Source of the DNA: Euonymus europaeus
Lineage: Eukaryota > Streptophyta > Magnoliopsida > Celastrales > Celastraceae
Reading direction: 5' to 3'
NCBI GenBank assembly: GCA_963580455.1
Contig: OY756971.1
Span: forward strand, 13,539,001 to 13,603,000
Length of the DNA stretch: 64,000 nt
Shown: in pieces, positions 11,661 through 45,484 of the stretch
How the letters are laid out: every line of letters starts with the position of its first letter
Position numbering within the stretch: position 1 is the first letter of the stretch
Translations under genes and position numbers: made by a program
The notes under the pieces: model-generated
Told to the model about the DNA's origin: nothing
The model's database searches: none
The model's input: only the letters and a program-made list of their open reading frames with translations

Positions 11661-13036
11661 TCATAGAAAGTTGGTATTTTGGCATCAAAATAATATTGGA
11701 AGCTTATACTCGTAAAATTGCACATAGAAGCAAAATAAAAAGTGTACACCATGGAACTTTGATGGTCCGAAGTTGCTCAACTCTCTTTATGGAGGAGCTT
11801 TTAACAATTTTGTTCATTCGTCATAGAAAGTCGCGGTTTTGTCATTGAAATAATCTAGGAAGCTTATACTCATAAAATTTGAAATAGAATAACAATAAAA
11901 AGTGTATACCGAGCAACTTTGGTGGTTCGAAGTTGATCAACTCTCTCTATGGAGGAGCTTTTAACGATTTTGTCCATTTGTCATAGAAAGTTAGTGTTTA
12001 TTCATTGAAATAATGTAGGAATCTTATACTCGTAAAATATTACATAGAAGCACATTAAAAAGTGTACACCGAGCAACTTTGATTGTCCGAACTTGCTCAA
12101 CTCTCTCTACGGAGGAGCTTTTGCCAGATTTGTCCATTTGTCATAGAAAGTTAGTGTTTATTCATCGAAATAATCTAGGAAGCTTATACTCGTAAAATTT
12201 GATATAGAAGAACATTAAAAAGTGTACACCGTGCAACTTTGATGGTCGGAAGTTGATCAACTCTCTCTATGGAGGAGCTTTTAAAGGTTTTGTCCATTTG
12301 TCATAGAAAGTTGGTGTTTTTTGCTTCGAAATAATCTTGAAGCTTATACTCGTAAAATTTGACATAGAAGAACAATAAAATGTGTACACCGAGCAGCTCT
12401 GACAGTCCAAAGTTGCTCAACTCTCTCTATGATGGAGCTTTTAAAAATTTTGTGCATTTGTCGTAGAAAGTCGAGGTTTTGTCATTGAAATAATCTAGGA
12501 AGCTTATACTCATAAAATTTGATATAGAATAACAATAAAAAGTGTATACCGAGCAACTTTGGTGGTTCGAAGTTGATCAACTCTCTCTATGCAGGAGCTT
12601 TTAATAGTTTTGTCTATTTGTCATAGAAAGTTAGTGTTTATTCATCAAAATAATCTAGGAAGCTTATACTCGTAAAATTTGACATAGAAGAACTTTAAAA
12701 AGTGTACACCGAGCAACTTTGATGGTCTGAAGTTGCTCAACTCTCTCTATGGAGGAGCTTTTAAAGGTTTTGTCCATTTGTCATAGAAAGTTGGTGTTTT
12801 TTGCTTCGTAATAATCTTGAAGCTTATACTCGTAAAATTTGACATAGAAGAACAATAAAATGTGTACACCGAGCAGCTCTGACAGTCTAAAGATGCTCAA
12901 CTCTCTCTATGATGGAGCTTTTAACAATTTTATGCATTTGTCGTAGAGAGTCGGGGTTTTGCATTGAAATAATATAGGAAGCTTATACTCATAAAATTTG
13001 AAATAGAATAACAATAAAAAGCGTACACTGAGCAAC

Positions 13037-15462: not shown

Positions 15463-18178
15463 CTACGGAGAAGCTTTTAATGGTTTTGTCCATTTGTCAT
15501 AGAAAGTTGGTGTTTTGGCATCAAAATAATCTTGAAGCTTATACTCGTAAAATTTGACATATAAGAACAATAAAATGTGTACACCGAGCAGCTCTGACAG
15601 TCCAAAGTTTCTCAACTCTCTCGATGGTGGAGCTTTTAACAATTTTGTGCGTTTGTCATAGAAAGTCGGGGTTTTGTCATTGAAATAATCTAGGAAGCTT
15701 AAACATATAAAATTTGAAATAGAATCACAATAAAAAGCGTACACCGAGTAACTTTGATGGTCCGAAGTTGCTCAACTCTCTCTATGGAAGATATTTTAAC
15801 GACTTTGTCCATTTGTCATAGAAAGTTAGTGTTTTGCCATCGAAATAATCTAGGAAGCTCATACTCATAAAATTTGACATAGAATAACAATAAAAAGTGT
15901 ATACCGAGCAACTTTGGCGGTTCGAAGTTGATCAACTCTCTCTATCCAGGAGCTTTTAACGGTTTTGTCCATTTGTCATAGAAAGTTAGTGTTTATTCAT
16001 CGAAATAATCTAGGAAGCTTATACTCGTAAAATTTGACATAGAAGAACTTTAAAAAGTGTACACCGAGCAACTTTGATGGTCTGAAGTTGCTCAACTCTC
16101 TCTACGGAGGAGCTTTTAAAGGTTTTGTCCATTTGTCATAGAAAGTTGGTGTTTTTGCTTCGAAATAATCTTGAAGCTTATACTCGTAAAATTTGACATA
16201 GAAGAACAATAAAATGTGTACACCGAGCAGCTCTGACAGTCCAAAGTTGCTGAACTCTCTCTATGATGGAGCTTTTAACAATTTTGTGCATTTGTCGTAG
16301 AAAGTCGAGGTTTTGTCATTGAAATAATCTAGGAAGCTTATACTCATAAAATTTGACATAGAATAACAATAAAAAGTGTATACCGAGCAACTTTGGTGGT
16401 TCGAAGTTGATCAACTCTCTCTATGAAGGAGCTTTTAACGGTTTTGTCCATTTGTCATAGAAAGTTAGTGTTTATTCATCGAAATAATCTAGGAAGCTTA
16501 TACTCGTAAAATTTGACATAGAAGAACTTTAAAAAGTGTACACCGAGCAACTTATATGGTCTGAAGTTGCTCAACTCTCTCTACGGAGGAGCTTTTAAAG
16601 GTTTTGTCCATTTGTCATAGAAAGTTGGTGTTTTTTGCTTCGTAATAATCTTGAAGCTTATACTCGTAAAATTTGACATAGAAGAACAATAAAATGTGTA
16701 CATCGAGCAGCTCTGACAGTCCAAAGTTGCTCAACTCTCTCTATGATGGAGCTTTTAACAATTTTATGCATTTGTCGTACAAAGTCGGGGTTTTGCATTG
16801 AAATAATCTAGGAAGCTTATACTCATAAAATTTGAAATAGAATAACAATAAAAAGCCTACACTGAGCAACTTTGATGGTCCGAAGTTGCTCAACTCTCTC
16901 TATGGAAGATATTTTAACGGCTTTGTCCATTTGTCGTAGAAAGTTAGTGTTTTGCCATCAAAATAATCTAGGAAGCTTATACTCTTAAAATTTGACATAG
17001 ACTAACAATAAAAAGTGTACACTGAGCAACTTTGGTGGTTCGAAATTGATCAACTCTCCCAATGGAGGAGCTTTTAACGGTTTTGTCCATTTGTCATAGA
17101 AACTTGGTATTTTGGCGTGAAATAATCTTGGAATCTTATACTCATAAAATTTGACATAGAAGCACAATAAAAAGTGTACACCGAGGAACTTTGATGGTCC
17201 AAAGTTGCTCAACTCTCTCTATGGGGAAGCTTTTAACAATTTTGTCTATTCGTCATAGAAAGTTGGTGTTTTGGCATCGAAATAATCTAGGAAGTTTATA
17301 CTCATAAACTTTGACATAGAAAAAAAATAAAAAGTATACAACGAGCAACTTTGATGGTCCGAAGTTGCTCAACAATGTCTACGGAAAAGCTTTTAATGGT
17401 TTTGTCCATTTGTCATAGAAAGTTGGTGTTTTTGCTTCGAAATAATCTTGAAAGCTTATACTCGTAAAATTTAACATAGAAGAACAATAAAATGTGTACA
17501 CCGAGCAGCTTTGACCGTCCAAAGTTGCTCAACTCTCTCTATGGTGGAGCTTTTAACAATTTTGTGCATTTGTCATAGAAAGTCGGGGTTTTGTCATTGA
17601 AATAATCTAGGAAGCTTATACTCATAAAATTTGAAATAGAATAACAATAAAAATCGTACACCGAGCAACTTTGATGGTTCGAAGTTGCTCAAATCTCCCA
17701 ATGGAAGATATTTTAACGGCTTTGTCCATTTGTCATAAAAAGTTGGTGTTTTGCCATCGAAATAATCTAGGAAGCTTATACTCATAAAATTTGACATAGA
17801 ATAACAATAAAAAGTGTATACCGAGCAACTTTGGTGGTTCGAAGTTGATCAACTCTCTCTATGTAGGAGCTTTTAACGGTTTTGTCCATTTGTCATAGAA
17901 AGTTAGTGTTTATTCATCGAAATAATCTAGGAAGCTTATACTCGTAAAATTTGACATAGAAGCACATTAAAAAGTGTACACCGAGCAACTTTGATGGTCC
18001 GAACTTGCTCAACTCTCTCTATGGAGGAGCTTTTACCGGCTTGCTCCATTTGTCATAGAAAGTTAGTGTTTATTCATCGAAACAATCTACGAAGCTTATA
18101 CTCGTAAAATTTGATATAGAAGAACATTAAAAAGTGTACACCGTGCAACTTTGATGGTCCGAAAATGATCAACTCTCT
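15463..18178. repeat. 17-monomer HOR unit, copy 1 (2716 bp)
   Basis: The phase is set arbitrarily at the CTACGG variant that precedes an AGCTTTTAATGGTTTTG monomer. The unit holds 17 monomers averaging 159.8 bp. Its marks include CTTGCTCCATTTGTC near the 3' end, GGCGTGAAATAATC, a run of eight A in CATAGAAAAAAAATAAAAAG, and TATATGGTCTG. The next copy begins exactly 2716 bp later with the same monomer order. It carries one copy of the three-monomer block that is doubled in copies 2 and 3. Confidence 0.9.
17843..17854. other. Example of the alternative satellite palindrome AGTTGATCAACT
   Basis: In monomers of the GGTGGTTCG subtype the same position holds a perfect 12-bp palindrome, AGTTGATCAACT, with TTCGAA just upstream. 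The long 9-bp-arm repeat of the other subtype is reduced to CAACTT/AAGTTG here. Every monomer checked keeps some dyad at this site. Confidence 0.85.
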
Positions 18179-18461
18179 CTACGGAGGAGCTTTTAATGGT
18201 TTTGTCCATTTGTCATAGAAAGTTGGTGTTTTGGCATCAAAACAATCTTGAAGCTTATACTCGTAAAATTTGACATATAAGAACAATAAAATGTGTACAC
18301 CGAGCAGCTCTGACAGTCCAAAGTTTCTCAACTCTCTCGATGGTGGAGCTTTTAACAATTTTGTGCGTTTGTCATAGAAAGTCGGGGTTTTGTCATTGAA
18401 ATAATCTAGGAAGCTTATACATATAAAATTTGAAATACAATCACAATAAAAAGCGTACACC

Positions 18462-18489
18462 GAGCAACTTTGATGGTCCGAAGTTGCTC
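18462..18489. other. Example of the conserved satellite inverted repeat (9-bp arms, 10-bp spacer)
   Basis: GAGCAACTT, ten spacer bases, then AAGTTGCTC: the arms are exact reverse complements. The same 28-bp arrangement recurs in many monomers of the GATGGTCCG subtype, for example 1858-1885. On single-stranded DNA or RNA it could fold into a hairpin. The right arm also overlaps a second dyad, AGTTG-CT-CAACT. Confidence 0.85.
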
Positions 18490-19020
18490 AACTCTCTCTA
18501 TGGAAGATATTTTAACGGCTTTGTCCATTTGTCATAGAAAGTTAGTGTTTTGCCATCGAAATAATCTAGGAAGCTCATACTCATAAAATTTGACATAGAA
18601 TAACAATAAAAAGTGTATACCGAGCAACTTTGGCGGTTCGAAGTTGATCAACTCTCTCTATCCAGGAGCTTTTAACGGTTTTGTCCATTTGTCATAGAAA
18701 GTTAGTGTTTATTCATCGAAATAATCTAGGAAGCTTATACTCGTAAAATTTGACATAGAAGAACTTTAAAAAGTGTACACCGAGCAACTTTGATGGTCTG
18801 AAGTTGCTCAACTCTCTCTACGGAGGAGCTTTTAAAGGTTTTGTCCATTTGTCATAGAAAGTTGGTGTTTTTGCTTCGAAATAATCTTGAAGCTTATACT
18901 CGTAAAATTTGACATAGAAGAACAATAAAATGTGTACACCAAGCAGCTCTGACAGTCCAAAGTTGCTGAACTCTCTCTATGATGGAGCTTTTAACAATTT
19001 TGTGCATTTGTCGTAGAAAG

Positions 19021-19978
19021 TCGAGGTTTTGTCATTGAAATAATCTAGGAACCTTATACTCATAAAATTTGACATAGAATAACAATAAAAAGTGTATACC
19101 GAGCAACTTTGGTGGTTCGAAGTTGATCAACTCTCTCTATGCAGGAGCTTTTAACGGTTTTGTCCATTTGTCATAGAAAGTTAGTGTTTATTCATCGAAA
19201 TAATCTAGGAAGCTTATACTCGTAAAATTTGACATAGAAGAACTTTAAAAAGTGTAAACCGAGCAACTTATATGGTCTGAAGTTGCTCAACTCTCTCTAC
19301 GGAGGAGCTTTTAAAGGTTTTGTCCATTTGTCATAGAAAGTTGGTGTTTTTGCTTCGAAATAATCTTGAAGCTTATACTCGTAAAATTTGACATAGAAGA
19401 ACAATAAAATGTGTACACCGAGCAGCTCTGACAGTCCAAAGTTGCTGAACTCTCTCTATGATGGAGCTTTTAACAATTTTGTGCATTTGTCGTAGAAAGT
19501 CGAGGTTTTGTCATTGAAATAATCTAGGAACCTTATACTCATAAAATTTGACATAGAATAACAATAAAAAGTGTATACCGAGCAACTTTGGTGGTTCGAA
19601 GTTGATCAACTCTCTCTATGCAGGAGCTTTTAACGGTTTTGTCCATTTGTCATAGAAAGTTAGTGTTTATTCATCGAAATAATCTAGGAAGCTTATACTC
19701 GTAAAATTTGACATAGAAGAACTTTAAAAAGTGTACACCGAGCAACTTATATGGTCTGAAGTTGCTCAACTCTCTCTACGGAGGAGCTTTTAAAGGTTTT
19801 GTCCATTTGTCATAGAAAGTTGGTGTTTTTTGCTTCGTAATAATCTTGAAGCTTATACTCGTAAAATTTGACATAGAAGAACAATAAAATGTGTACATCG
19901 AGCAGCTCTGACAGTCCAAAGTTGCTCAACTCTCTCTATGATGGAGCTTTTAACAATTTTATGCATTTGTCGTACAAA
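19021..19978. repeat. Tandem three-monomer duplication (2 x 479 bp) inside HOR copy 2
   Basis: The mark TCGAGGTTTTGTCATTGAAA followed by GGAACCTTATACTC occurs at 19021 and 19500, 479 bp apart. The block between also contains TATATGGTCTGAAG and GTTGCTGAACTC twice. Copy 1 has this block once. Confidence 0.88.
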
Positions 19979-21373
19979 GTCGGGGTTTTGCATTGAAATA
20001 ATCTAGGAAGCTTATACTCATAAAATTTGAATTAGAATAACAATAAAAAGCCTACACTGAGCAACTTTGATGGTCCGAAGTTGCTCAACTCTCTCTATGG
20101 AAGATATTTTAACGGCTTTGTCCATTTGTCGTAGAAAGTTCGTGTTTTGCCATCAAAATAATCTAGGAAGCTTATACTCTTAAAATTTGACATAGACTAA
20201 CAATAAAAAGTGTACACTGAGCAACTTTGGTGGTTCGAAATTGATCAACTCTCCCAATGGAGGAGCTTTTAACGGTTTTGTCCATTTGTCATAGAAACTT
20301 GGTATTTTGGCGTGAAATAATCTTGGAATCTTATACTCATAAAATTTGACATAGAAGCACAATAAAAAGTGTACACCGAGGAACTTTGATGGTCCAAAGT
20401 TGCTCAACTCTCTCTATGGGGAAGCTTTTAACAATTTTGTCTATTCGTCATAGAAAGTTGGTGTTTTGGCATCGAAATAATCTAGGAAGTTTATACACAT
20501 AAACTTTGACATAGAAAAAAAATAAAAAGTATACAACGAGCAACTTTGATGGTCCGAAGTTGCTCAACAATGTCTACGGAAAAGCTTTTAATGGTTTTGT
20601 CCATTTGTCATAGAAAGTTGGTGTTTTTGCTTCGAAATAATCTTGAAAGCTTATACTCGTAAAATTTAACATAGAAGAACAATAAAATGTGTACACCGAG
20701 CAGCTTTGACCGTCCAAAGTTGCTCAACTCTCTCTATGGTGGAGCTTTTAACAATTTTGTGCATTTGTCATAGAAAGTCGGGGTTTTGTCATTGAAATAA
20801 TCTAGGAAGCTTATACTCATAAAATTTGAAATAGAATAACAATAAAAATCGTACACCGAGCAACTTTGATGGTCCGAAGTTGCTCAAATCTCCCAATGGA
20901 AGATATTTTAACGGCTTTGTCCATTTGTCATAAAAAGTTGGTGTTTTGCCATCGAAATAATCTAGGAAGCTTATACTCATAAAATTTGACATAGAATAAC
21001 AATAAAAAGTGTATACCGAGCAACTTTGGTGGTTCGAAGTTGATCAACTCTCTCTATGTAGGAGCTTTTAACGGTTTTGTCCATTTGTCATAGAAAGTTA
21101 GTGTTTATTCATCGAAATAATCTAGGAAGCTTATACTCGTAAAATTTGACATAGAAGCACATTAAAAAGTGTACACCGAGCAACTTTGATGGTCCGAACT
21201 TGCTCAACTCTCTCTATGGAGGAGCTTTTACCGGCTTGCTCCATTTGTCATAGAAAGTTAGTGTTTATTCATCGAAACAATCTACGAAGCTTATACTCGT
21301 AAAATTTGATATAGAAGAACATTAAAAAGTGTACACCGTGCAACTTTGATGGTCCGAAAATGATCAACTCTCT

Positions 21374-24300
21374 CTACGGAGGAGCTTTTAATGGTTTTGT
21401 CCATTTGTCATAGAAAGTTGGTGTTTTGGCATCAAAACAATCTTGAAGCTTATACTCGTAAAATTTGACATATAAGAACAATAAAATGTGTACACCGAGC
21501 AGCTCTGACAGTCCAAAGTTTCTCAACTCTCTCGATGGTGGAGCTTTTAACAATTTTGTGCGTTTGTCATAGAAAGTCGGGGTTTTGTCATTGAAATAAT
21601 CTAGGAAGCTTATACATATAAAATTTGAAATACAATCACAATAAAAAGCGTACACCGAGCAACTTTGATGGTCCGAAGTTGCTCAACTCTCTCTATGGAA
21701 GATATTTTAACGGCTTTGTCCATTTGTCATAGAAAGTTAGTGTTTTGCCATCGAAATAATCTAGGAAGCTCATACTCATAAAATTTGACATAGAATAACA
21801 ATAAAAAGTGTATACCGAGCAACTTTGGCGGTTCGAAGTTGATCAACTCTCTCTATCCAGGAGCTTTTAACGGTTTTGTCCATTTGTCATAGAAAGTTAG
21901 TGTTTATTCATCGAAATAATCTAGGAAGCTTATACTCGTAAAATTTGACATAGAAGAACTTTAAAAAGTGTACACCGAGCAACTTTGATGGTCTGAAGTT
22001 GCTCAACTCTCTCTACGGAGGAGCTTTTAAAGGTTTTGTCCATTTGTCATAGAAAGTTGGTGTTTTTGCTTCGAAATAATCTTGAAGCTTATACTCGTAA
22101 AATTTGACATAGAAGAACAATAAAATGTGTACACCAAGCAGCTCTGACAGTCCAAAGTTGCTGAACTCTCTCTATGATGGAGCTTTTAACAATTTTGTGC
22201 ATTTGTCGTAGAAAGTCGAGGTTTTGTCATTGAAATAATCTAGGAACCTTATACTCATAAAATTTGACATAGAATAACAATAAAAAGTGTATACCGAGCA
22301 ACTTTGGTGGTTCGAAGTTGATCAACTCTCTCTATGCAGGAGCTTTTAACGGTTTTGTCCATTTGTCATAGAAAGTTAGTGTTTATTCATCGAAATAATC
22401 TAGGAAGCTTATACTCGTAAAATTTGACATAGAAGAACTTTAAAAAGTGTACACCGAGCAACTTATATGGTCTGAAGTTGCTCAACTCTCTCTACGGAGG
22501 AGCTTTTAAAGGTTTTGTCCATTTGTCATAGAAAGTTGGTGTTTTTGCTTCGAAATAATCTTGAAGCTTATACTCGTAAAATTTGACATAGAAGAACAAT
22601 AAAATGTGTACACCGAGCAGCTCTGACAGTCCAAAGTTGCTGAACTCTCTCTATGATGGAGCTTTTAACAATTTTGTGCATTTGTCGTAGAAAGTCGAGG
22701 TTTTGTCAGTGAAATAATCTAGGAACCTTATACTCATAAAATTTGACATAGAATAACAATAAAAAGTGTATACCGAGCAACTTTGGTGGTTCGAAGTTGA
22801 TCAACTCTCTCTATGCAGGAGCTTTTAACGGTTTTGTCCATTTGTCATAGAAAGTTAGTGTTTATTCATCGAAATAATCTAGGAAGCTTATACTCGTAAA
22901 ATTTGACATAGAAGAACTTTAAAAAGTGTACACCGAGCAACTTATATGGTCTGAAGTTGCTCAACTCTCTCTACGGAGGAGCTTTTAAAGGTTTTGTCCA
23001 TTTGTCATAGAAAGTTGGTGTTTTTTGCTTCGTAATAATCTTGAAGCTTATACTCGTAAAATTTGACATAGAAGAACAATAAAATGTGTACATCGAGCAG
23101 CTCTGACAGTCCAAAGTTGCTCAACTCTCTCTATGATGGAGCTTTTAACAATTTTATGCATTTGTCGTACAAAGTCGGGGTTTTGCATTGAAATAATCTA
23201 GGAAGCTTATACTCATAAAATTTGAAATAGAATAACAATAAAAAGCCTACACTGAGCAACTTTGATGGTCCGAAGTTGCTCAACTCTCTCTATGGAAGAT
23301 ATTTTAACGGCTTTGTCCATTTGTCGTAGAAAGTTCGTGTTTTGCCATCAAAATAATCTAGGAAGCTTATACTCTTAAAATTTGACATAGACTAACAATA
23401 AAAAGTGTACACTGAGCAACTTTGGTGGTTCGAAATTGATCAACTCTCCCAATGGAGGAGCTTTTAACGGTTTTGTCCATTTGTCATAGAAACTTGGTAT
23501 TTTGGCGTGAAATAATCTTGGAATCTTATACTCATAAAATTTGACATAGAAGCACAATAAAAAGTGTACACCGAGGAACTTTGATGGTCCAAAGTTGCTC
23601 AACTCTCTCTATGGGGAAGCTTTTAACAATTTTGTCTATTCGTCATAGAAAGTTGGTGTTTTGGCATCGAAATAATCTAGGAAGTTTATACACATAAACT
23701 TTGACATAGAAAAAAAATAAAAAGTATACAACGAGCAACTTTGATGGTCCGAAGTTGCTCAACAATGTCTACGGAAAAGCTTTTAATGGTTTTGTCCATT
23801 TGTCATAGAAAGTTGGTGTTTTTGCTTCGAAATAATCTTGAAAGCTTATACTCGTAAAATTTAACATAGAAGAACAATAAAATGTGTACACCGAGCAGCT
23901 TTGACCGTCCAAAGTTGCTCAACTCTCTCTATGGTGGAGCTTTTAACAATTTTGTGCATTTGTCATAGAAAGTCGGGGTTTTGTCATTGAAATAATCTAG
24001 GAAGCTTATACTCATAAAATTTGAAATAGAATAACAATAAAAATCGTACACCGAGCAACTTTGATGGTCCGAAGTTGCTCAAATCTCCCAATGGAAGATA
24101 TTTTAACGGCTTTGTCCATTTGTCATAAAAAGTTGGTGTTTTGCCATCGAAATAATCTAGGAAGCTTATACTCATAAAATTTGACATAGAATAACAATAA
24201 AAAGTGTATACCGAGCAACTTTGGTGGTTCGAAGTTGATCAACTCTCTCTATGTAGGAGCTTTTAACGGTTTTGTCCATTTGTCATAGAAAGTTAGTGTT

Positions 24301-24568
24301 TATTCATCGAAATAATCTAGGAAGCTTATACTCGTAAAATTTGACATAGAAGCACATTAAAAAGTGTACACCGAGCAACTTTGATGGTCCGAACTTGCTC
24401 AACTCTCTCTATGGAGGAGCTTTTACCGGCTTGCTCCATTTGTCATAGAAAGTTAGTGTTTATTCATCGAAACAATCTACGAAGCTTATACTCGTAAAAT
24501 TTGATATAGAAGAACATTAAAAAGTGTACACCGTGCAACTTTGATGGTCCGAAAATGATCAACTCTCT
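21374..24568. repeat. 20-monomer HOR unit, copy 3 (3195 bp = 17 + 3)
   Basis: It is nearly identical to copy 2 by eye, including the doubled three-monomer block (the repeated mark lies at about 22215 and 22694). One visible private change is GTCAGTGAAATAATC near 22706, where copy 2 has GTCATTGAAATAATC. The pair is best explained by tandem duplication of a whole 3195-bp unit. Confidence 0.9.
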
Positions 24569-27284
24569 CTACGGAGGAGCTTTTAATGGTTTTGTCCATT
24601 TGTCATAGAAAGTTGGTGTTTTGGCATCAAAATAATCTTGAAGCTTATACTCGTAAAATTTGACATATAAGAACAATAAAATGTGTACACCGAGCAGCTC
24701 TGACAGTCCAAAGTTTCTCAACTCTCTCGATGGTGGAGCTTTTAACAATTTTGTGCGTTTGTCATAGAAAGTCGGGGTTTTGTCATTGAAATAATCTAGG
24801 AAGCTTATACATATAAAATTTGAAATACAATCACAATAAAAAGCGTACACCGAGCAACTTTGATGGTCCGAAGTTGCTCAACTCTCTCTATGGAAGATAT
24901 TTTAACGGCTTTGTCCATTTGTCATAGAAAGTTAGTGTTTTGCCATCGAAATAATCTAGGAAGCTCATACTCATAAAATTTGACATAGAATAACAATAAA
25001 AAGTGTATACCGAGCAACTTTGGCGGTTCGAAGTTGATCAACTCTCTCTATCCAGGAGCTTTTAACGGTTTTGTCCATTTGTCATAGAAAGTTAGTGTTT
25101 ATTCATCGAAATAATCTAGGAAGCTTATACTCGTAAAATTTGACATAGAAGAACTTTAAAAAGTGTACACCGAGCAACTTTGATGGTCTGAAGTTGCTCA
25201 ACTCTCTCTACGGAGGAGCTTTTAAAGGTTTTGTCCATTTGTCATAGAAAGTTGGTGTTTTTGCTTCGAAATAATCTTGAAGCTTATACTCGTAAAATTT
25301 GACATAGAAGAACAATAAAATGTGTACACCGAGCAGCTCTGACAGTCCAAAGTTGCTGAACTCTCTCTATGATGGAGCTTTTAACAATTTTGTGCATTTG
25401 TCGTAGAAAGTCGAGGTTTTGTCATTGAAATAATCTAGGAACCTTATACTCATAAAATTTGACATAGAATAACAATAAAAAGTGTATACCGAGCAACTTT
25501 GGTGGTTCGAAGTTGATCAACTCTCTCTATGCAGGAGCTTTTAACGGTTTTGTCCATTTGTCATAGAAAGTTAGTGTTTATTCATCGAAATAATCTAGGA
25601 AGCTTATACTCGTAAAATTTGACATAGAAGAACTTTAAAAAGTGTACACCGAGCAACTTATATGGTCTGAAGTTGCTCAACTCTCTCTACGGAGGAGCTT
25701 TTAAAGGTTTTGTCCATTTGTCATAGAAAGTTGGTGTTTTTTGCTTCGTAATAATCTTGAAGCTTATACTCGTAAAATTTGACATAGAAGAACAATAAAA
25801 TGTGTACACCGAGCAGCTCTGACAGTCCAAAGTTGCTCAACTCTCTCTATGATGGAGCTTTTAACAATTTTATGCATTTGTCGTAGAAAGTCGGGGTTTT
25901 GCACTGAAATAATCTAGGAAGCTCATACTCATAAAATTTGAAATAGAATAACAATAAAAAGCCTACACTGAGCAACTTTGATGGTCCGAAGTTGCTCAAC
26001 TCTCTCTATGGAAGATATTTTAACGGCTTTGTCCATTTGTCGTAGAAAGTTAGTGTTTTGCCATCAAAATAATCTAGGAAGCTTATACTCTTAAAATTTG
26101 ACATAGACTAACAATAAAAAGTGTACACTGAGCAACTTTGGTGGTTCGAAATTGATCAACTCTCCCAATGGAGGAGCTTTTAACGGTTTTGTCCATTTGT
26201 CATAGAAACTTGGTATTTTGGCGTGAAATAATCTTGGAATCTTATACTCATAAAATTTGACATAGAAGCACAATAAAAAGTGTACACCGAGGAACTTTGA
26301 TGGTCCAAAGTTGCTCAACTCTCTCTATAGGGAAGCTTTTAACAATTTTGTCTATTCGTCATAGAAAGTTGGTGTTTTGGCATCGAAATAATCTAGGAAG
26401 TTTATACTCATAAACTTTGACATAGAAAAAAAATAAAAAGTATACAACGAGCAACTTTGATGGTCCGAAGTTGCTCAACAATGTCTACGGAAAAGCTTTT
26501 AATGGTTTTGTCCATTTGTCATAGAAAGTTGGTGTTTTTGCTTCGAAATAATCTTGAAAGCTTATACTCGTAAAATTTAACATAGAAGAACAATAAAATG
26601 TGTACACCGAGCAGCTTTGACCGTCCAAAGTTGCTCAACTCTCTCTATGGTGGAGCTTTAAACAATTTTGTGCATTTGTCATAGAAAGTCGGGGTTTTGT
26701 CATTGAAATAATCTAGGAAGCTTATACTCATAAAATTTGAAATAGAATAACAATAAAAATCGTACACCGAGCAACTTTGATGGTCCGAAGTTGCTCAAAT
26801 CTCCCAATGGAAGATATTTTAACGGCTTTGTCCATTTGTCATAAAAAGTTGGTGTTTTGCCATCGAAATAATCTAGGAAGCTTATACTCATAAAATTTGA
26901 CATAGAATAACAATAAAAAGTGTATACCGAGCAACTTTGGTGGTTCGAAGTTGATCAACTCTCTCTATGCAGGAGCTTTTAACGGTTTTGTCCATTTGTC
27001 ATAGAAAGTTAGTGTTTATTCATCGAAATAATCTAGGAAGCTTTTACTCGTAAAATTTGACATAGAAGCACATTAAAAAGTGTACACCGAGCAACTTTGA
27101 TGGTCCGAACTTGCTCAACTCTCTCTATGGAGGAGCTTTTACCGGCTTTGTCCATTTGTCATAGAAAGTTAGTGTTTATTCATCGAAATAATCTACGAAG
27201 CTTATACTCGTAACATTTGATATAGAAGAACTTTAAAAAGTGTACACCGTGCAACTTTGATGGTCCGAAGTTGATCAACTCTCT
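24569..27284. repeat. 17-monomer HOR unit, copy 4, type A (2716 bp)
   Basis: This begins the 34-monomer super-repeat. Type A marks are CTCTCTATAGGGAAGC (near 26321), GGAGCTTTAAACAATTTTG (near 26653), GCACTGAAATAATC and GGAAGCTCATACTC. The extra three-monomer block of copies 2-3 is absent. The unit recurs 5428 bp downstream with almost no change. Confidence 0.9.
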
Positions 27285-35424: not shown

Positions 35425-38140
35425 CTACGGAGGAGCTTTTAATGGTTTTGTCCATTTGTCATAGAAAGTTGGTGTTTTGGCATCAAAATAATCTTGAAGC
35501 TTATACTCGTAAAATTTGACATATAAGAACAATAAAATGTGTACACCGAGCAGCTCTGACAGTCCAAAGTTTCTCAACTCTCTCGATGGTGGAGCTTTTA
35601 ACAATTTTGTGCGTTTGTCATAGAAAGTCGGGGTTTTGTCATTGAAATAATCTAGGAAGCTTATACATATAAAATTTGAAATACAATCACAATAAAAAGC
35701 GTACACCGAGCAACTTTGATGGTCCGAAGTTGCTCAACTCTCTCTATGGAAGATATTTTAACGGCTTTGTCCATTTGTCATAGAAAGTTAGTGTTTTGCC
35801 ATCGAAATAATCTAGGAAGCTCATACTCATAAAATTTGACATAGAATAACAATAAAAAGTGTATACCGAGCAACTTTGGCGGTTCGAAGTTGATCAACTC
35901 TCTCTATCCAGGAGCTTTTAACGGTTTTGTCCATTTGTCATAGAAAGTTAGTGTTTATTCATCGAAATAATCTAGGAAGCTTATACTCGTAAAATTTGAC
36001 ATAGAAGAACTTTAAAAAGTGTACACCGAGCAACTTTGATGGTCTGAAGTTGCTCAACTCTCTCTACGGAGGAGCTTTTAAAGGTTTTGTCCATTTGTCA
36101 TAGAAAGTTGGTGTTTTTGCTTCGAAATAATCTTGAAGCTTATACTCGTAAAATTTGACATAGAAGAACAATAAAATGTGTACACCGAGCAGCTCTGACA
36201 GTCCAAAGTTGCTGAACTCTCTCTATGATGGAGCTTTTAACAATTTTGTGCATTTGTCGTAGAAAGTCGAGGTTTTGTCATTGAAATAATCTAGGAACCT
36301 TATACTCATAAAATTTGACATAGAATAACAATAAAAAGTGTATACCGAGCAACTTTGGTGGTTCGAAGTTGATCAACTCTCTCTATGCAGGAGCTTTTAA
36401 CGGTTTTGTCCATTTGTCATAGAAAGTTAGTGTTTATTCATCGAAATAATCTAGGAAGCTTATACTCGTAAAATTTGACATAGAAGAACTTTAAAAAGTG
36501 TACACCGAGCAACTTATATGGTCTGAAGTTGCTCAACTCTCTCTACGGAGGAGCTTTTAAAGGTTTTGTCCATTTGTCATAGAAAGTTGGTGTTTTTTGC
36601 TTCGTAATAATCTTGAAGCTTATACTCGTAAAATTTGACATAGAAGAACAATAAAATGTGTACACCGAGCAGCTCTGACAGTCCAAAGTTGCTCAACTCT
36701 CTCTATGATGGAGCTTTTAACAATTTTATGCATTTGTCGTAGAAAGTCGGGGTTTTGCACTGAAATAATCTAGGAAGCTCATACTCATAAAATTTGAAAT
36801 AGAATAACAATAAAAAGCCTACACTGAGCAACTTTGATGGTCCGAAGTTGCTCAACTCTCTCTATGGAAGATATTTTAACGGCTTTGTCCATTTGTCGTA
36901 GAAAGTTAGTGTTTTGCCATCAAAATAATCTAGGAAGCTTATACTCTTAAAATTTGACATAGACTAACAATAAAAAGTGTACACTGAGCAACTTTGGTGG
37001 TTCGAAATTGATCAACTCTCCCAATGGAGGAGCTTTTAACGGTTTTGTCCATTTGTCATAGAAACTTGGTATTTTGGCGTGAAATAATCTTGGAATCTTA
37101 TACTCATAAAATTTGACATAGAAGCACAATAAAAAGTGTACACCGAGGAACTTTGATGGTCCAAAGTTGCTCAACTCTCTCTATAGGGAAGCTTTTAACA
37201 ATTTTGTCTATTCGTCATAGAAAGTTGGTGTTTTGGCATCGAAATAATCTAGGAAGTTTATACTCATAAACTTTGACATAGAAAAAAAATAAAAAGTATA
37301 CAACGAGCAACTTTGATGGTCCGAAGTTGCTCAACAATGTCTACGGAAAAGCTTTTAATGGTTTTGTCCATTTGTCATAGAAAGTTGGTGTTTTTGCTTC
37401 GAAATAATCTTGAAAGCTTATACTCGTAAAATTTAACATAGAAGAACAATAAAATGTGTACACCGAGCAGCTTTGACCGTCCAAAGTTGCTCAACTCTCT
37501 CTATGGTGGAGCTTTAAACAATTTTGTGCATTTGTCATAGAAAGTCGGGGTTTTGTCATTGAAATAATCTAGGAAGCTTATACTCATAAAATTTGAAATA
37601 GAATAACAATAAAAATCGTACACCGAGCAACTTTGATGGTCCGAAGTTGCTCAAATCTCCCAATGGAAGATATTTTAACGGCTTTGTCCATTTGTCATAA
37701 AAAGTTGGTGTTTTGCCATCGAAATAATCTAGGAAGCTTATACTCATAAAATTTGACATAGAATAACAATAAAAAGTGTATACCGAGCAACTTTGGTGGT
37801 TCGAAGTTGATCAACTCTCTCTATGCAGGAGCTTTTAACGGTTTTGTCCATTTGTCATAGAAAGTTAGTGTTTATTCATCGAAATAATCTAGGAAGCTTT
37901 TACTCGTAAAATTTGACATAGAAGCACATTAAAAAGTGTACACCGAGCAACTTTGATGGTCCGAACTTGCTCAACTCTCTCTATGGAGGAGCTTTTACCG
38001 GCTTTGTCCATTTGTCATAGAAAGTTAGTGTTTATTCATCGAAATAATCTACGAAGCTTATACTCGTAACATTTGATATAGAAGAACTTTAAAAAGTGTA
38101 CACCGTGCAACTTTGATGGTCCGAAGTTGATCAACTCTCT
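35425..38140. repeat. 17-monomer HOR unit, copy 8, type A (2716 bp)
   Basis: This is the third type A copy, in register with copies 4 and 6 at multiples of 5428 bp. It keeps CTATAGGGAAGC (near 37181) and GCTTTAAACAATTTTG (near 37511). Confidence 0.9.
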
Positions 38141-40852
38141 CTACGGAGGAGCTTTTAATGGTTTTGTCCATTTGTCATAGAAAGTTGGTGTTTTGGCATC
38201 AAAATAATCTTGAAGCTTATACTCGTAAAATTTGACATATAAGAACAATAAAATGTGTACAACGAGCAGCTCTGACAGTCCAAAGTTTCTCAACTCTCTC
38301 GATGGTGGAGCTTTTAACAATTTTGTGCGTTTGTCATAGAAAGTCGGGGTTTTGTCATTGAAATAATCTAGGAAGCTTATACTCATAAAATTTGAAATAG
38401 AATCACAATAAAAAGCGTACACCGAGCAACTTTGATGGTCCGAAGTTCCTCAACTCTCTCTATGGAAGATATTTTAACGGCTTTGTCCATTTGTCATAGA
38501 AAGTTAGTGTTTTGCCATCGAAATAATCTAGGAAGCTCATACTCATAAAATTTGACATAGAATAACAATAAAAAGTGTATACCGAGCAACTTTGGCGGTT
38601 CGAAGTTGATCAACTCTCTCTATCCAGGAGCTTTTAACGGTTTTGTCCATTTGTCATAGAAAGTTAGTGTTTATTCATCGAAATAATCTAGGAAGCTTAT
38701 ACTCGTAAAATTTGACATAGAAGAACTTTAAAAAGTGTACACCGAGCAACTTTGATGGTCTGAAGTTGCTCAACTATCTCTACGGAGGAGCTTTTAAAGG
38801 TTTTGTCCATTTGTTATAGAAAGTTGGTGTTTTTGCTTCGAAATAATCTTGAAGCTTATACTCGTAAAATTTGACATAGAAGAACAATAAAATGTGTACA
38901 CCGAGCAGCTCTGACAGTCCAAAGTTGCTGAACTCTCTCTATGATGGAGCTTTTAACAATTTTGTGCATTTGTCGTAGAAAGTCGAGGTTTTGTCATTGA
39001 AATAATCTAGGAACCTTATACTCATAAAATTTGACATAGAATAACAAAAAGTGTATACCGAGCAACTTTGGTGGTTCGAAGTTGATCAACTCTCTCTATG
39101 CAGGAGCTTTTAACGGTTTTGTCCATTTGTCATAGAAAGTTAGTGTTTATTCATCGAAATAATCTAGGAAGCTTATACTCGTAAAATTTGACATAGAAGA
39201 ACTTTAAAAAGTGTACACCGAGCAACTTATATGGTCTGAAGTTGCTCAACTCTCTCTACGGAGGAGCTTTTAAAGGTTTTGTCCATTTGTCATAGAAAGT
39301 TGGTGTTTTTTGCTTCGTAATAATCTTGAAGCTTATACTCGTAAAATTTGACATAGAAGAACAATAAAATGTGTACACCGAGCAGCTCTGACAGTCCAAA
39401 GTTGCTCAACTCTCTCTATGATGGAGCTTTTAACAATTTTATGCATTTGTCGTAGAAGGTCGGGGTTTTGCATTGAAATAATCTAGGAAGCTTATACTCA
39501 TAAAATTTGAAATAGAATAACAATAAAAAGCCTACACGGAGCAACTTTGATGGCCCGAAGTTGCTCAACTCTCTCTATGGAAGATATTTTAACGGCTTTG
39601 TCCATTTGTCGTAGAAAGTTAGTGTTTTGCCATCAAAATAATCTAGGAAGCTTATACTCTTAAAATTTGACATAGTCTAACAATAAAAAGTGTACACCGA
39701 GCAACTTTGGTGGTTCGAAATTGATCAACTCTCCCTAAGGAGGAGCTTTTAACGGTTTTGTCCATTTGTCATAGAAACTTGGTATTTTGGCATCAAATAA
39801 TCTTGGAAGCTTATACTCATAAAATTTGACATAGAAGCAGAATAAAAAGTGTACACCGAGGAACGTTGATGGTCCAAAGTTGCTCAACTCTCTCTATGGG
39901 GAAGCTTTTAACAATTTTGTCCATTCGTCATAGAAAGTTGGTGTTTTGGCATAGAAATAATCTAGGAAGCTTATACTCATAAACTTTGACATAGAAAAAA
40001 ATAAAAAGTATACAACGAGCAACTTTGATGGTCCGAAGTTACTCAACAATGTCTACGGAAAAGCTTTTAATGGTTTTGTCCATTTGTCACAGAAAGTTGG
40101 TGTTTTTGCTTCGAAATAATCTTGAAATCTTATACTCGTAAAATTTAACATAGAAGAACAATAAAATGTATACACCGAGCAGCTTTGACCGTCCAAAGTT
40201 GCTCAACTCTCTCTTTGGTGGAGCTTTTAACAATTTTGTGCATTTGTCATAGAAAGTCGGGGTTTTGTCATTGAAATAATCTAGGAAGCTTATACTCATA
40301 AAATTTGAAATAGAATAACAATAAAAATCGTACACCGAGCAACTTTGATGGTCCGAAGTTGCTCAAATCTCCCAATGGAAGATATTTTGACGGCTTTGTC
40401 CATTTATCATAAAAAGTTGGTGTTTTGCCATCGAAATAATCTAGGAAGCTTATACTCATAAAATTTGACATAGAATAACAATAAAAAGTGTATACCGAGC
40501 AACTTTGGTGGTTCGAAGTTGATCAACTCTCTCTATGTAGGAGCTTTTAACGGTTTTGTCCATTTGTCATAGAAAGTTAGTGTTTATTCATCGAAATAAT
40601 CTAGGAAGCTTATACTCGTAAAATTTGACATAGAAGCACATTAAAAAGTGTACACCGAGCAACTTTGATGGTCCGAACTTGCTCAACTCTCTCTATGGAG
40701 GAGCTTTTACCGGCTTGCTCCATTTGTCATAGAAAGTTAGTGTTTATTCATCGAAACAATCTACGAAGCTTATACTCGTAAAATTTGATATAGAAGAACA
40801 TTAAAAAGTGTACACCGTGCAACTTTGATGGTCCGAAAATGATCAACTCTCT
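38141..40852. repeat. 17-monomer HOR unit, copy 9, type B (2712 bp)
   Basis: This is the third type B copy, with the 3-bp deletion form GAATAACAAAAAGTG and the other B marks. It has CTCTCGATGGTGG, as in copy 11, rather than the GATGCTGG of copies 5 and 7. Confidence 0.9.
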
Positions 40853-43568
40853 CTACGGAGGAGCTTTTAATGGTTTTGTCCATTTGTCATAGAAAGTTGG
40901 TGTTTTGGCATCAAAATAATCTTGAAGCTTATACTCGTAAAATTTGACATATAAGAACAATAAAATGTGTACACCGAGCAGCTCTGACAGTCCAAAGTTT
41001 CTCAACTCTCTCGATGGTGGAGCTTTTAACAATTTTGTGCGTTTGTCATAGAAAGTCGGGGTTTTGTCATTGAAATAATCTAGGAAGCTTATACATATAA
41101 AATTTGAAATACAATCACAATAAAAAGCGTACACCGAGCAACTTTGATGGTCCGAAGTTGCTCAACTCTCTCTATGGAAGATATTTTAACGGCTTTGTCC
41201 ATTTGTCATAGAAAGTTAGTGTTTTGCCATCGAAATAATCTAGGAAGCTCATACTCATAAAATTTGACATAGAATAACAATAAAAAGTGTATACCGAGCA
41301 ACTTTGGCGGTTCGAAGTTGATCAACTCTCTCTATCCAGGAGCTTTTAACGGTTTTGTCCATTTGTCATAGAAAGTTAGTGTTTATTCATCGAAATAATC
41401 TAGGAAGCTTATACTCGTAAAATTTGACATAGAAGAACTTTAAAAAGTGTACACCGAGCAACTTTGATGGTCTGAAGTTGCTCAACTCTCTCTACGGAGG
41501 AGCTTTTAAAGGTTTTGTCCATTTGTCATAGAAAGTTGGTGTTTTTGCTTCGAAATAATCTTGAAGCTTATACTCGTAAAATTTGACATAGAAGAACAAT
41601 AAAATGTGTACACCGAGCAGCTCTGACAGTCCAAAGTTGCTGAACTCTCTCTATGATGGAGCTTTTAACAATTTTGTGCATTTGTCGTAGAAAGTCGAGG
41701 TTTTGTCATTGAAATAATCTAGGAACCTTATACTCATAAAATTTGACATAGAATAACAATAAAAAGTGTATACCGAGCAACTTTGGTGGTTCGAAGTTGA
41801 TCAACTCTCTCTATGCAGGAGCTTTTAACGGTTTTGTCCATTTGTCATAGAAAGTTAGTGTTTATTCATCGAAATAATCTAGGAAGCTTATACTCGTAAA
41901 ATTTGACATAGAAGAACTTTAAAAAGTGTACACCGAGCAACTTATATGGTCTGAAGTTGCTCAACTCTCTCTACGGAGGAGCTTTTAAAGGTTTTGTCCA
42001 TTTGTCATAGAAAGTTGGTGTTTTTTGCTTCGTAATAATCTTGAAGCTTATACTCGTAAAATTTGACATAGAAGAACAATAAAATGTGTACACCGAGCAG
42101 CTCTGACAGTCCAAAGTTGCTCAACTCTCTCTATGATGGAGCTTTTAACAATTTTATGCATTTGTCGTAGAAAGTCGGGGTTTTGCACTGAAATAATCTA
42201 GGAAGCTCATACTCATAAAATTTGAAATAGAATAACAATAAAAAGCCTACACTGAGCAACTTTGATGGTCCGAAGTTGCTCAACTCTCTCTATGGAAGAT
42301 ATTTTAACGGCTTTGTCCATTTGTCGTAGAAAGTTAGTGTTTTGCCATCAAAATAATCTAGGAAGCTTATACTCTTAAAATTTGACATAGACTAACAATA
42401 AAAAGTGTACACTGAGCAACTTTGGTGGTTCGAAATTGATCAACTCTCCCAATGGAGGAGCTTTTAACGGTTTTGTCCATTTGTCATAGAGACTTGGTAT
42501 TTTGGCGTGAAATAATCTTGGAATCTTATACTCATAAAATTTGACATAGAAGCACAATAAAAAGTGTACACCGAGGAAATTTGATGGTCCAAAGTTGCTC
42601 AACTCTCTCTATGGGGAAGCTTTTAACAATTTTGTCTATTCGTCATAGAAAGTTGGTGTTTTGGCATCGAAATAATCTAGGAAGTTTATACTCATAAACT
42701 TTGACATAGAAAAAAAATAAAAAGTATACAACGAGCAACTTTGATGGTCCGAAGTTGCTCAACAATGTCTACGGAAAAGCTTTTAATGGTTTTGTCCATT
42801 TGTCATAGAAAGTTGGTGTTTTTGCTTCGAAATAATCTTGAAAGCTTATACTCGTAAAATTTAACATAGAAGAACAATAAAATGTGTACACCGAGCAGCT
42901 TTGACCGTCCAAAGTTGCTCAACTCTCTCTATGGTGGAGCTTTTAACAATTTTGTGCATTTGTCATAGAAAGTCGGGGTTTTGTCATTGAAATAATCTAG
43001 GAAGCTTATACTCATAAAATTTGAAATAGAATAACAATAAAAATCGTACACCGAGCAACTTTGATGGTCCGAAGTTGCTCAAATCTCCCAATGGAAGATA
43101 TTTTAACGGCTTTGTCCATTTGTCATAAAAAGTTGGTGTTTTGCCATCGAAATAATCTAGGAAGCTTATACTCATAAAATTTGACATAGAATAACAATAA
43201 AAAGTGTATACCGAGCAACTTTGGTGGTTTGAAGTTGATCAACTCTCTCTATGCAGGAGCTTTTAACGGTTTTGTCCATTTGTCATAGAAAGTTAGTGTT
43301 TATTCATCGAAATAATCTAGGAAGCTTTTACTCGTAAAATTTGACATAGAAGCACATTAAAAAGTGTACACCGAGCAACTTTGATGGTCCGAACTTGCTC
43401 AACTCTCTCTATGGAGGAGCTTTTACCGGCTTTGTCCATTTGTCATAGAAAGTTAGTGTTTATTCATCGAAATAATCTACGAAGCTTATACTCGTAACAT
43501 TTGATATAGAAGAACTTTAAAAAGTGTACACCGTGCAACTTTGATGGTCCGAAGTTGATCAACTCTCT
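40853..43568. repeat. 17-monomer HOR unit, copy 10, type A mosaic (2716 bp)
   Basis: Length and most marks are type A, but the interval around 42480-42960 differs from A copies 4, 6 and 8. It has CTCTATGGGGAAGC (not ATAGGGAAGC) and GGAGCTTTTAACAATTTTG (not GCTTTAAAC), as in copies 1-3. Private changes are CATAGAGACTTGG (near 42487), GAGGAAATTTGATGG (near 42574) and GGTGGTTTGAAG (near 43224). This is consistent with conversion by an older unit, or with an older A lineage at the array edge. Confidence 0.85.
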
Positions 43569-45484
43569 CTACGGAGGAGCTTTTAATGGTTTTGTCCATT
43601 TGTCATAGAAAGTTGGTGTTTTGGCATCAAAATAATCTTGAAGCTTATACTCGTAAAATTTGACATATAAGAACAATAAAATGTGTACAACGAGCAGCTC
43701 TGACAGTCCAAAGTTTCTCAACTCTCTCGATGGTGGAGCTTTTAACAATTTTATGCATTCGTCGTAGAAAGTCGGGGTTTTGCATTGAAATAATCTAGGA
43801 AGCTTATACTCATAAAATTTGAAATAGAATAACAATAAAAAGCCTACACGGAGCAACTTTGATGGTCCGAAGTTGCTCAACTCTCTCTATGGAAGATATT
43901 TTAACGGCTTTGTCCATTTGTCGTAGAAAGTTAGTGTTTTGCCATCAAAATAATCTAGGAAGCTTATACTCTTAAAATTTGACATAGTCTAACAATAAAA
44001 AGTGTACACCGAGCAACTTTGGTGGTTCGAAATTGATCAACTCTCCCTATGGAGGAGCTTTTAACGGTTTTGTCCATTTGTCATAGAAACTTGGTATTTT
44101 GGCATCAAATAATCTTGGAAGCTTATACTCATAAAATTTGACATAGAAGCACAATAAAAAGTGTACACCGAGGAACGTTGATGGTCCAAAGTTGCTCAAC
44201 TCTCTCTATGGGGAAGCTTTTAACAATTTTGTCCATTCGTCATAGAAAGTTGGTGTTTTGGCATAGAAATAATCTAGGAAGCTTATACTCATAAACTTTG
44301 ACATAGAAAAAAATAAAAAGTATACAACGAGCAACTTTGATGGTCCGAAGTTACTCAACAATGTCTACTGAAAAGCTTTTAATGGTTTTGTCCATTTGTC
44401 ACAGAAAGTTGGTGTTTTTGCTTCGAAATAATCTTGAAATCTTATACTCGTAAAATTTAACATAGAAGAACAATAAAATGTATACACCGAGCAGCTTTGA
44501 CCGTCCAAAGTTGCTCAACTCTCTCTTTGGTGGAGCTTTTAACAATTTTGTGCATTTGTCATAGAAAGTCGGGGTTTTGTCATTGAAATAATCTAGGAAG
44601 CTTATACTCATAAAATTTGAAATAGAATAACAATAAAAATCGTACACCGAGCAACTTTGATGGTCCGAAGTTGCTCAAATCTCTCAATGGAAGATATTTT
44701 AACGGCTTTGTCCATTTGTCATAAAAAGTTGGTCTTTTGCCATCGAAATAATCTAGGAAGCTTATACTCATAAAATTTGACATAGAATAACAATAAAAAG
44801 TGCATACCGAGCAACTTTGGTGGTTCGAAGTTGATCAACTCTCTCTATGCAGGAGCTTTTAACGGTTTTGTCCATTTGTCATAGAAAGTTAGTGTTTATT
44901 CATCGAAATAATTTAGGAAGCTTATACTCGTAAAATTTGACATAGAAGCACATTAAAAAGTGTACACCGAGCAACTTTGATGGTCCGAACTTGCTCAACT
45001 CTCTCTATGGAGGAGCTTTTACCGGCTTTGTCCATTTGTCATAGAAAGTTAGTGTTTATTCATCGAAACAATCTACGAAGCTTATACTCGTAAAATTTGA
45101 TATAGAAGAACATTAAAAAGTGTACACGGTGCAACTTTGATGGTCCGAAGTTGATCAACTCTCTCTATGCAGAAGCTTTTAACGGTTTTGTCCATTTGTC
45201 ATAGAAAGTTAGTGTTTATTCATCGAAATAATTTAGGAAGCTTATACTCGTAAAATTTGACATAGAAGCACATTAAAAAGTGTACACCGAGCAACTTTGA
45301 TGGTCCGAACTTGCTCAACTCTCTCTATGGATGAGCTTTTACCGGCTTTGTCCATTTGTCATAGAAAGTTAGTGTTTATTCACCGAAACAATCTACGAAG
45401 CTTATACTCGTAAAATTTGATATAGAAGAACATTAAAAAGTGTACACCGTGCAACTTTGATGGTCCGAAGTTGATCAACTCTCT
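43569..45484. repeat. HOR copy 11, type B with internal deletion and duplication (1916 bp)
   Basis: It starts as type B, then jumps near 43751 to sequence that lies 1116 bp further on in copy 9 (landmark TGCATTGAAA at 43781 versus 39469). That is a clean loss of seven monomers. It later gains a 320-bp two-monomer duplication (44820-45460). The arithmetic closes exactly: 2712 - 1116 + 320 = 1916 bp. The unit is the right boundary of the highly homogeneous core. Confidence 0.85.
44820..45460. repeat. Tandem two-monomer duplication (2 x 320 bp)
   Basis: The rare variant AAATAATTTAGGAAGC occurs at 44908 and 45228, exactly 320 bp apart, with matching flanks, including GCACATTAAAAAGTG and AAACAATCTACGAAGC in both halves. 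Each half is two monomers. Confidence 0.85.

What the first reader, a model, noticed from the sequence alone, without database searches (positions are those of the whole stretch)
15463..45484. Nested higher-order repeats: 160 bp to 17-mer (2716 bp) to 34-mer (5428 bp)
The core has three levels of periodicity. Monomers of about 160 bp are arranged in a fixed order of 17. From 24569 the 17-mers alternate as types A (2716 bp) and B (2712 bp), forming a 5428-bp unit found three times nearly intact and a fourth time in damaged form. The same landmarks fall at exactly +5428 bp repeatedly (for example 26091, 31519, 36947, 42375). Such long multi-level HORs are the hallmark of human alpha satellite; many plant centromeric satellites show weak or short HORs, so this one merits description.
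Basis: seen in the sequence. Interest (0 to 1): 0.75.

Follow-up and report, generated by a model that had tools for sequence, protein, structure and literature searches.

The report
Nested repeats in a plant satellite
A 64-kb stretch of a plant-like chromosome is made of a 160-base repeat, and in its middle blocks of 17 and then 34 repeats have been copied as whole units; it is a clear example of a known way in which centromere-type DNA grows, not a new kind of element.

Summary
The window is a head-to-tail ~160-bp satellite (379 full monomers cut, all on one strand). From about 13.4 to 45.5 kb it forms a 17-monomer higher-order repeat (HOR). From about 23.7 to 43.8 kb pairs of diverged 17-mers (A and B, 98.4% identical) are amplified as a 34-mer of 5428 bp, about 3.7 times. 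Three copies differ by 0 or 1 substitution; a fourth is diverged and lacks 7 monomers. Corrections: the HOR starts about 2 kb earlier than reported; two of ten full units are 20-mers with an extra triplet; the 17-mer holds 14 monomer types; the A/B lengths depend on phase. The arrangement looks private: one diagnostic 36-mer tested genome-wide occurs 10 times in 443 Mb, all here. It is one of several short local HORs in the same array (21-, 12-, 26-, 8-mers and others); a 10-mer lies on another contig. B, and less clearly A, look like mosaics. Best explanation: repeated in-register duplication of blocks of many monomers (break-induced-replication type) inside a probably centromeric array. Plant HORs up to 24 monomers are in print, so this is a new member of a known kind. 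CENH3 binding and copy number in reads were not testable.

The parts
1..52440 (+). head-to-tail ~160-bp satellite array, all monomers found on + strand
   Evidence: TRF 160-bp period, 328 copies; 381 HMM hits in the window, all +
13415..45484 (+). 17-mer HOR family (whole HOR block)
   Evidence: lag-2716 similarity from 13415; unit calls; A-specific words end at 45465
14049..16764 (+). 17-mer unit U1 (2716 bp)
16765..23154 (+). two 20-mer units V1 and V2 (3195 bp each): 17-mer plus one extra monomer triplet
   Evidence: lag 3195 at 99.5% over start positions 15819-22559
23155..25870 (+). 17-mer unit U2; last ~1.75 kb without a substitution from B units
25871..31298 (+). 34-mer copy 1 (A1 25871-28583, B1 28584-31298)
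31299..36726 (+). 34-mer copy 2 (A2, B2), 0 substitutions from copy 1
36727..42154 (+). 34-mer copy 3 (A3, B3), 1 substitution
42155..43751 (+). A4: short A unit, 10 of 17 monomers, 6 substitutions from A1 in 1597 bp
43752..45021 (+). B4: partial, more diverged B unit (13 substitutions from B1 in the first 1270 bp; end approximate)
45567..49178 (+). separate local 8-mer HOR (1279 bp, about 2.5 copies), 98.7% at lag 1279
52441..55784 (.). ~3.34-kb insertion splitting a monomer: TG...CA ends, CTTAT on both sides, longest open frame 125 aa; reads as a solo LTR
   Evidence: sequence; frames and ends
55785..64000 (+). satellite array resumes and runs out of the window

Best explanation
It is a young, locally confined, nested HOR block in a ~160-bp satellite that is probably part of the centromere of this chromosome. 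Shown: 160-bp monomers are ordered in a 17-mer; two 17-mers that differ by 1.6% (A, B) form a 34-mer present about 3.7 times with 0-1 differences among three copies; unit sizes are whole numbers of monomers; the diagnostic words tested genome-wide occur only here. Inferred mechanism: repeated in-register duplication of adjacent blocks of many monomers (out-of-register repair such as break-induced replication, or unequal sister exchange), first giving 17-mers and a 20-mer variant, then duplicating A+B as one unit. Switching or conversion between diverged copies made B, and perhaps A, mosaic, and an in-register loss of 7 monomers shortened the fourth copy. Centromere role: inferred only.
For: Identity ladder: monomers about 85%, A vs B 98.4%, 34-mer copies 99.98-100%. 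In-frame: of 14 HOR periods tested, 12 (2712, 2716, 5428, 3195, 479, 3356, 1279, 4148, 4156, 1117, 639, 1594 bp) lie within 0.04 of a whole number of 159.76-bp monomers. All 23 B-derived substitutions lie in columns 15-967 of 2716 (KS p 8e-10; 0 of 20000 simulations reach it); 17 of 22 A-derived ones lie in columns 1099-2088 (57 of 20000). Other local HORs in the same array: 489 of 645 monomers in the held right part (window included) and 441 of 689 in the left part lie in HOR runs, 383 and 217 of them in tandem HORs of at least two full units. Diagnostic 36-mer 10 hits genome-wide, B-specific 36-mer 3 hits, all here. Best matches stay local: 597 of 645 right-part, 676 of 689 left-part and 62 of 63 C1 monomers have their best match in their own part. 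Mean best identity to unit U2 falls from 0.992 (core) to 0.95-0.97 (flanks), 0.929, 0.915 (left part) and 0.886 on C1. Arabidopsis lines show in-frame 1-31-monomer indels, insertions more often than deletions (PMC12321929 passage).
Against: No reads: copies identical over 5.4 kb could be miscounted by the assembler. 2 of the 14 periods are not whole monomers (1896 bp = 11.87; 3645 bp = 22.8). The clustering of A-derived sites is weak by KS (p 0.058), and the scan windows were chosen after seeing the data. Mean monomer identity hardly changes with distance in the right part (0.856-0.859 up to 50 kb, 0.846 at 80-120 kb); only the share of near-identical pairs falls. The gradient compares everything with U2, so part of it is built in. 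Of 1030 36-mers shared by all ten units only 99 were confined to them in the held sequence; I tested one of these genome-wide. Unequal crossover, break-induced replication and rolling-circle reinsertion leave similar traces. No CENH3 or methylation data; the satellite also lies in an inverted block 3.7 Mb away.
Confidence: 0.8

Rival explanations
1. The 34-mer level is an assembly duplication: one AB pair (or one AB plus an A) was repeated by the assembler.
For: AB1 and AB2 are identical over 5428 bp and AB3 differs by one base.
Against: The 17-mer level does not depend on it: U1, V1, V2 and U2 differ from each other by 5-18 substitutions. The fourth AB is distinct (6 substitutions in 1597 bp of A4, 13 in 1270 bp of B4, and 7 monomers missing). 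A similar 21-mer block lies about 33 kb away.
Confidence: 0.08
2. Homogenisation rather than amplification: old AB copies were made identical by gene conversion.
For: A and B have patchy divergence; U2 and B share about 1.75 kb without a substitution.
Against: Whole 5.4-kb units are identical at every site, while the neighbouring A4/B4 kept 6 and 13 differences. Arabidopsis conversion tracts are about 125 bp (PMC12321929 passage).
Confidence: 0.1
3. Rolling-circle amplification of an excised 5.4-kb circle, reinserted as a tandem.
For: Would give identical tandem copies in one step; no call bears on it directly.
Against: The block is in register with its neighbours and the fourth copy is more diverged; PMC12321929 argues that reintegration is likely much rarer than excision. 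Nothing here requires it.
Confidence: 0.08
4. The structure is right but the array is not centromeric: a heterochromatic satellite block that forms HORs for the same recombinational reasons.
For: Salicaceae non-centromeric arrays also form HORs without CENH3 peaks (PMC12046899 passage); the satellite lies in more than one block on C15 and in both orientations on C1.
Against: Nucleosome-sized AT-rich monomer, very abundant (18,487 exact copies of one 31-mer, reversed control 0); satellite found inside C15 between 13.17 and 13.65 Mb of 24.0 Mb (13.30-13.529 Mb seen only as single hits), with LTR retrotransposons inserted.
Confidence: 0.25

Closest known systems
Human alpha-satellite HOR arrays, including the 34-mer of the Y (PMC8997354, PMC12321929 passages)
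   Same: diverged nucleosome-length monomers in a fixed order, near-identical multimer copies, locus-private words, less similar sequence around a homogeneous core
   Different: about 30 kb and about a dozen units here against 340 kb-4.8 Mb; no CENP-B box consensus in the window; monomer about 160 rather than about 171 bp; retrotransposons inserted
Cascading HORs of human chromosome 15 (PMC11050224) and local-nested HORs of HiCAT (PMC10053651)
   Same: monomer types recur inside the unit (17 monomers, 14 types at a 4% cut-off) and a triplet is present two or three times
   Different: hundreds of copies in the human arrays (429 and 164); different satellite
Arabidopsis CEN178/CEN180 HORs (PMC12321929, PMC10053651, PMC10199239 passages)
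   Same: local, chromosome-specific HORs, in-register block gains and losses of many monomers
   Different: mostly 2-3 monomers there (8-mer in CEN2); 17, 20, 21, 26 and 34 monomers here
Pennisetum CentP HORs (PMC12933667) and Populus Palv156 HORs (PMC12046899), passages
   Same: plant satellites of ~156 bp, chromosome-specific HORs, similarity higher at short distance; CentP blocks up to 24 monomers
   Different: sequences were not compared with ours; no explicit HOR-of-HOR in the passages seen

Membership tests
Higher-order-repeat satellite | copies of a multimer far more alike than monomers within it | tested here: met
   monomers about 85%; full units 98.4-99.8% between different types, 99.96-100% within A or B; 34-mers 99.98-100%
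Higher-order-repeat satellite | tandem, in-register repetition beyond chance | tested here: met
   run of 91 monomers at lag 34 against a maximum of 5 in 200 shuffles
Human-type active alpha-satellite array | one HOR homogeneous over hundreds of kb | tested here: not met
   17-mer family about 30 kb, 34-mer about 20 kb; neighbouring HORs differ; the diagnostic word is only here
Human-type active alpha-satellite array | CENP-B boxes | tested here: not met
   0 matches in the window to the recalled consensus on either strand, strict or relaxed
Human-type active alpha-satellite array | sequence homology to alpha satellite | not tested
   no alpha-satellite sequence was compared
Cascading / local-nested HOR | a monomer type occurs more than once in the unit | tested here: met
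   14 types in 17 monomers at 4%; the two 20-mer units carry one triplet more
Plant centromeric satellite | AT-rich, nucleosome-length monomer, very abundant | tested here: met
   mean 159.7 bp, GC about 0.35 in satellite bins, 18,487 exact 31-mers in 443 Mb
Plant centromeric satellite | main array at one site on every chromosome | tested here: inconclusive
   seen on C1 and C15 only; the listing stops at 100 places; a further search stayed unanswered
Plant centromeric satellite | CENH3 occupancy | not testable with these tools
   no ChIP data

The most novel reading that the evidence does not exclude
The 34-mer block is the newest, still-growing layer of a plant centromere: an unusually long (34-monomer) nested HOR, built by duplications of tens of monomers and by switches of about 1 kb between diverged units, around which older 17-, 20-, 21- and 8-mer layers lie as in the layered-expansion model of human centromeres, and it is where CENH3 sits.
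Probability: 0.25. Interest if true: 0.55.

Novelty: new member of a known kind. Interest (0 to 1): 0.36.

Why it matters
It is a clean example of HOR growth in a plant-type satellite: triplet, 17-mer, 20-mer and 34-mer levels can be read in 30 kb, with a mosaic signature in B and an in-register loss of monomers. This makes the block-duplication (break-induced replication) model testable at one locus. It also warns that long nested HORs are not a primate hallmark and do not by themselves prove centromere function.

Tried and rejected
Species and satellite name: searches of the held papers for four monomer words (0 papers) and for 160-bp satellite phrases gave no paper that I could tie to this satellite. 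One listed paper, on the Rosa satellite CANR4 (156-160 bp), was checked by passages: it shows no full monomer, and the one primer end visible there does not occur in our consensus monomer (by eye). An Ipomoea lead was a guess that gave nothing.

CENP-B box: none in the window. Hairpin: the consensus monomer carries a 9-bp dyad (all 9 pairs kept in 333 of 1397 monomers), but pairing inside monomers (7.797 of 9) is no better than between shuffled monomers (7.789, sd 0.006, maximum of 200 shuffles 7.807), so there is no sign of compensatory change; the fold of one monomer is ordinary (z -1.22). No tRNA in the window (ARAGORN); no Rfam match in 52000-56500, the only part searched. A consensus-monomer DNA search gave nothing; the tool says it skips very common words, so this shows nothing. 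One BLAST of the 17-mer against the 21-mer was badly set and is not used (part); one search replaces it. Exact words of 60-100 bp cut from a consensus matched nothing held. Reading more than a numerical coincidence into the human Y 34-mer was rejected.
Full report
What is in the window. The window is G000:C15:13539001-13603000 of an unnamed 443.4-Mb genome in 30 contigs. Apart from one insertion it is a single satellite: TRF finds a 160-bp period over 1-52440 and 55785-64000. I found 381 HMM matches, all on the + strand; 379 could be cut as monomers of 150-166 bp. Neighbours are about 84% identical and any two monomers average 86%. GC is about 0.35 outside the insertion. Plant origin is my inference from the satellite type and the retroelements.

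Check of the observation. Inside the reported interval the best lag is 5428 bp, then 160, 639, 10856, 479 and 2716. Across the 379 monomers, lag 17 (0.913) and lag 34 (0.904) are the highest of lags 1-79; the others range from 0.839 to 0.893, with 51, 68 and 20 next. 96 of 362 pairs at lag 17 and 103 of 345 at lag 34 are at 98% or more. Lag 5428 is 99.8% identical over 14.7 kb of start positions. Shuffling the order of 328 monomers 200 times never gave a run above 5, against 91 observed.

Anatomy. Clustering at 4% divergence gives the 17-mer order 24-25-26-17-27-4-11-2-20-23-28-11-12-13-22-12-13, so 14 types in 17 positions with a near-repeated triplet at its end. Ten full units lie between 14049 and 42154: U1 (17), V1 and V2 (20 each, with one triplet more), U2 (17), then A1 B1 A2 B2 A3 B3. 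A4 keeps 10 of 17 monomers and passes in register into a partial B4. Substitutions between units: A-B 42-43, U2-A 23-24, U2-B 25, V2-U2 5, V1-V2 6; A1 = A2, B1 = B2 = B3, A3 one. A4 and B4 are more diverged: 6 substitutions in 1597 bp and 13 in 1270 bp.

Mosaic origin of A and B. Taking the four U/V units as the reference state, all 23 B-derived sites lie in the first 967 of 2716 columns, and the rest of B has no substitution from U2. A-derived sites lie mostly (17 of 22) in columns 1099-2088. For B this is far from uniform (KS p 8e-10; 0 of 20000 simulations); for A it is weaker (KS p 0.058; 57 of 20000 in a scan whose width was chosen afterwards). Either diverged segments were brought in, or the remainder was homogenised with U2; the data do not say which. 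Among the BLAST hits of 700 bp or more that I listed from the held sequence, none matches the B segment better than the B units themselves (B4 99.1%, then 97.5%).

Surroundings. Satellite begins near 13.173 Mb; 13529001-13537604 and several inserts are not satellite. In the two held parts 441 of 689 and 489 of 645 monomers lie in HOR runs (3 or more monomers at 97% or more), 217 and 383 in tandem HORs with at least two full units. Local tandem HORs include a 21-mer (3356 bp, 4.1 copies, 13617462-13631204) and 12-, 13-, 23-, 26-, 8-, 7-, 5-, 4- and 3-mers; the C1 sample holds a 10-mer, 3.6 copies (1594 bp). So the 17/34-mer is the largest of several local blocks in what was seen, not the theme of the whole array. 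Best matches are local: 597 of 645, 676 of 689 and 62 of 63 monomers match best inside their own part. Mean best identity to unit U2 is 0.992 in the core, 0.95-0.97 in the flanks, 0.929 further right, 0.915 in the left part and 0.886 on C1. In the right part pairs at 97% or more make up 2.9% at 0-2 kb, 5.5% at 2-6 kb and 0.8% at 80-120 kb; 0.17% between the two held parts of C15 and 0 between the right part and C1. The mean identity itself is nearly flat (0.856-0.859 up to 50 kb, 0.846 at 80-120 kb), so what falls with distance is the share of recent copies.

Privacy and abundance. Of 1030 36-mers shared by all ten full units, 99 occur in the held sequence only those ten times. One of them was searched in the whole genome: 10 hits, all in this window. 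One B-specific 36-mer gave 3 hits, in B1-B3. Reversed-pattern controls were 0. A 310-bp probe from A1 had all its listed matches on C15, but only 40 of 5129 candidates were scored. A general 31-mer occurs 18,487 times, reversed control 0; it was counted 48 times in the window against 379 monomers, so if that rate is typical the genome holds roughly 146,000 monomers, about 23 Mb. This is a rough extrapolation.

Transposons. 52441-55784 has TG...CA ends, CTTAT on both sides and no open frame above 125 aa: a solo-LTR-like insertion. Just right of the window (66792-76088 in window numbering) sits a 9.3-kb Ty3-type element with two identical 2170-bp ends and a 1591-aa gag-pol frame, GTTTA on both sides. 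Further LTR-retrotransposon frames (gag, reverse transcriptase, RNase H, integrase) lie at 13.23-13.25 Mb and in 13.529-13.5376 Mb. No chromodomain family was reported for the nine frames scanned.

How it most likely works. Shown: order, identities, in-register sizes, local confinement, mosaic B. Inferred: blocks of adjacent monomers are duplicated in register, again and again, by out-of-register repair or exchange; the 34-mer is the latest step here. This fits the Arabidopsis mutation-accumulation result of in-frame 1-31-monomer indels with more insertions than deletions (PMC12321929 citing Dong 2025; passage seen) and the break-induced-replication model (PMC8997354 passages). That the array is the centromere is inferred from type, abundance, position and retroelements; PMC12046899 shows that HOR structure alone does not prove it.

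Comparison and novelty. Similar structures are known: human HORs up to a 34-mer on the Y (PMC8997354), cascading HORs (PMC11050224), local-nested HORs and an 8-mer in Arabidopsis CEN2 (PMC10053651), HOR blocks up to 24 monomers in Pennisetum (PMC12933667). For all papers I saw only search listings and passages. A 34-monomer nested unit is longer than the plant HOR blocks I saw described, but ten paper searches of an open-licence library do not show that longer ones are absent from print. Verdict: real, well formed, a new member of a known kind.

Noticed in passing
G000:C15:9437106-9479571 (not fetched): The same satellite occurs on the opposite strand about 3.7 Mb from the main array, which suggests an inversion or a second, possibly old, satellite block.
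   Followed up: no
G000:C1:11452892-12090998: Among the 100 places listed for C1, the satellite word runs on the - strand at 11.45-11.62 Mb and on the + strand at 11.85-12.09 Mb: opposite orientations within one region.
   Followed up: no
window 52441-55784: Solo-LTR-like 3.34-kb insertion with TG...CA ends and a 5-bp target duplication CTTAT; the ends resemble Tat/Ogre-type LTRs (resemblance recalled, not tested).
   Followed up: partly
window numbering 66792-76088 (L029-L030): Very young Ty3-type LTR element in the array: two ends of 2170 bp without a difference and one uninterrupted 1591-aa frame.
   Followed up: partly
L030-L031, C15:13617462-13631204: A 21-mer HOR of 3356 bp, 4.1 copies, whose monomers match 17-mer monomers at 95-99%.
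   Followed up: partly
C15:13635679-13641845 and C15:13174543-13182630: HOR periods that are not whole monomers (1896 bp = 11.87; 3645 bp = 22.8 monomers), so some units carry a shortened monomer or an out-of-register join.
   Followed up: no
consensus monomer, positions 101-128: A 9-bp dyad (GAGCAACTT...AAGTTGCTC) with a 10-bp loop; arms slightly more conserved than average (0.930 against 0.909), no covariation between arms.
   Followed up: yes
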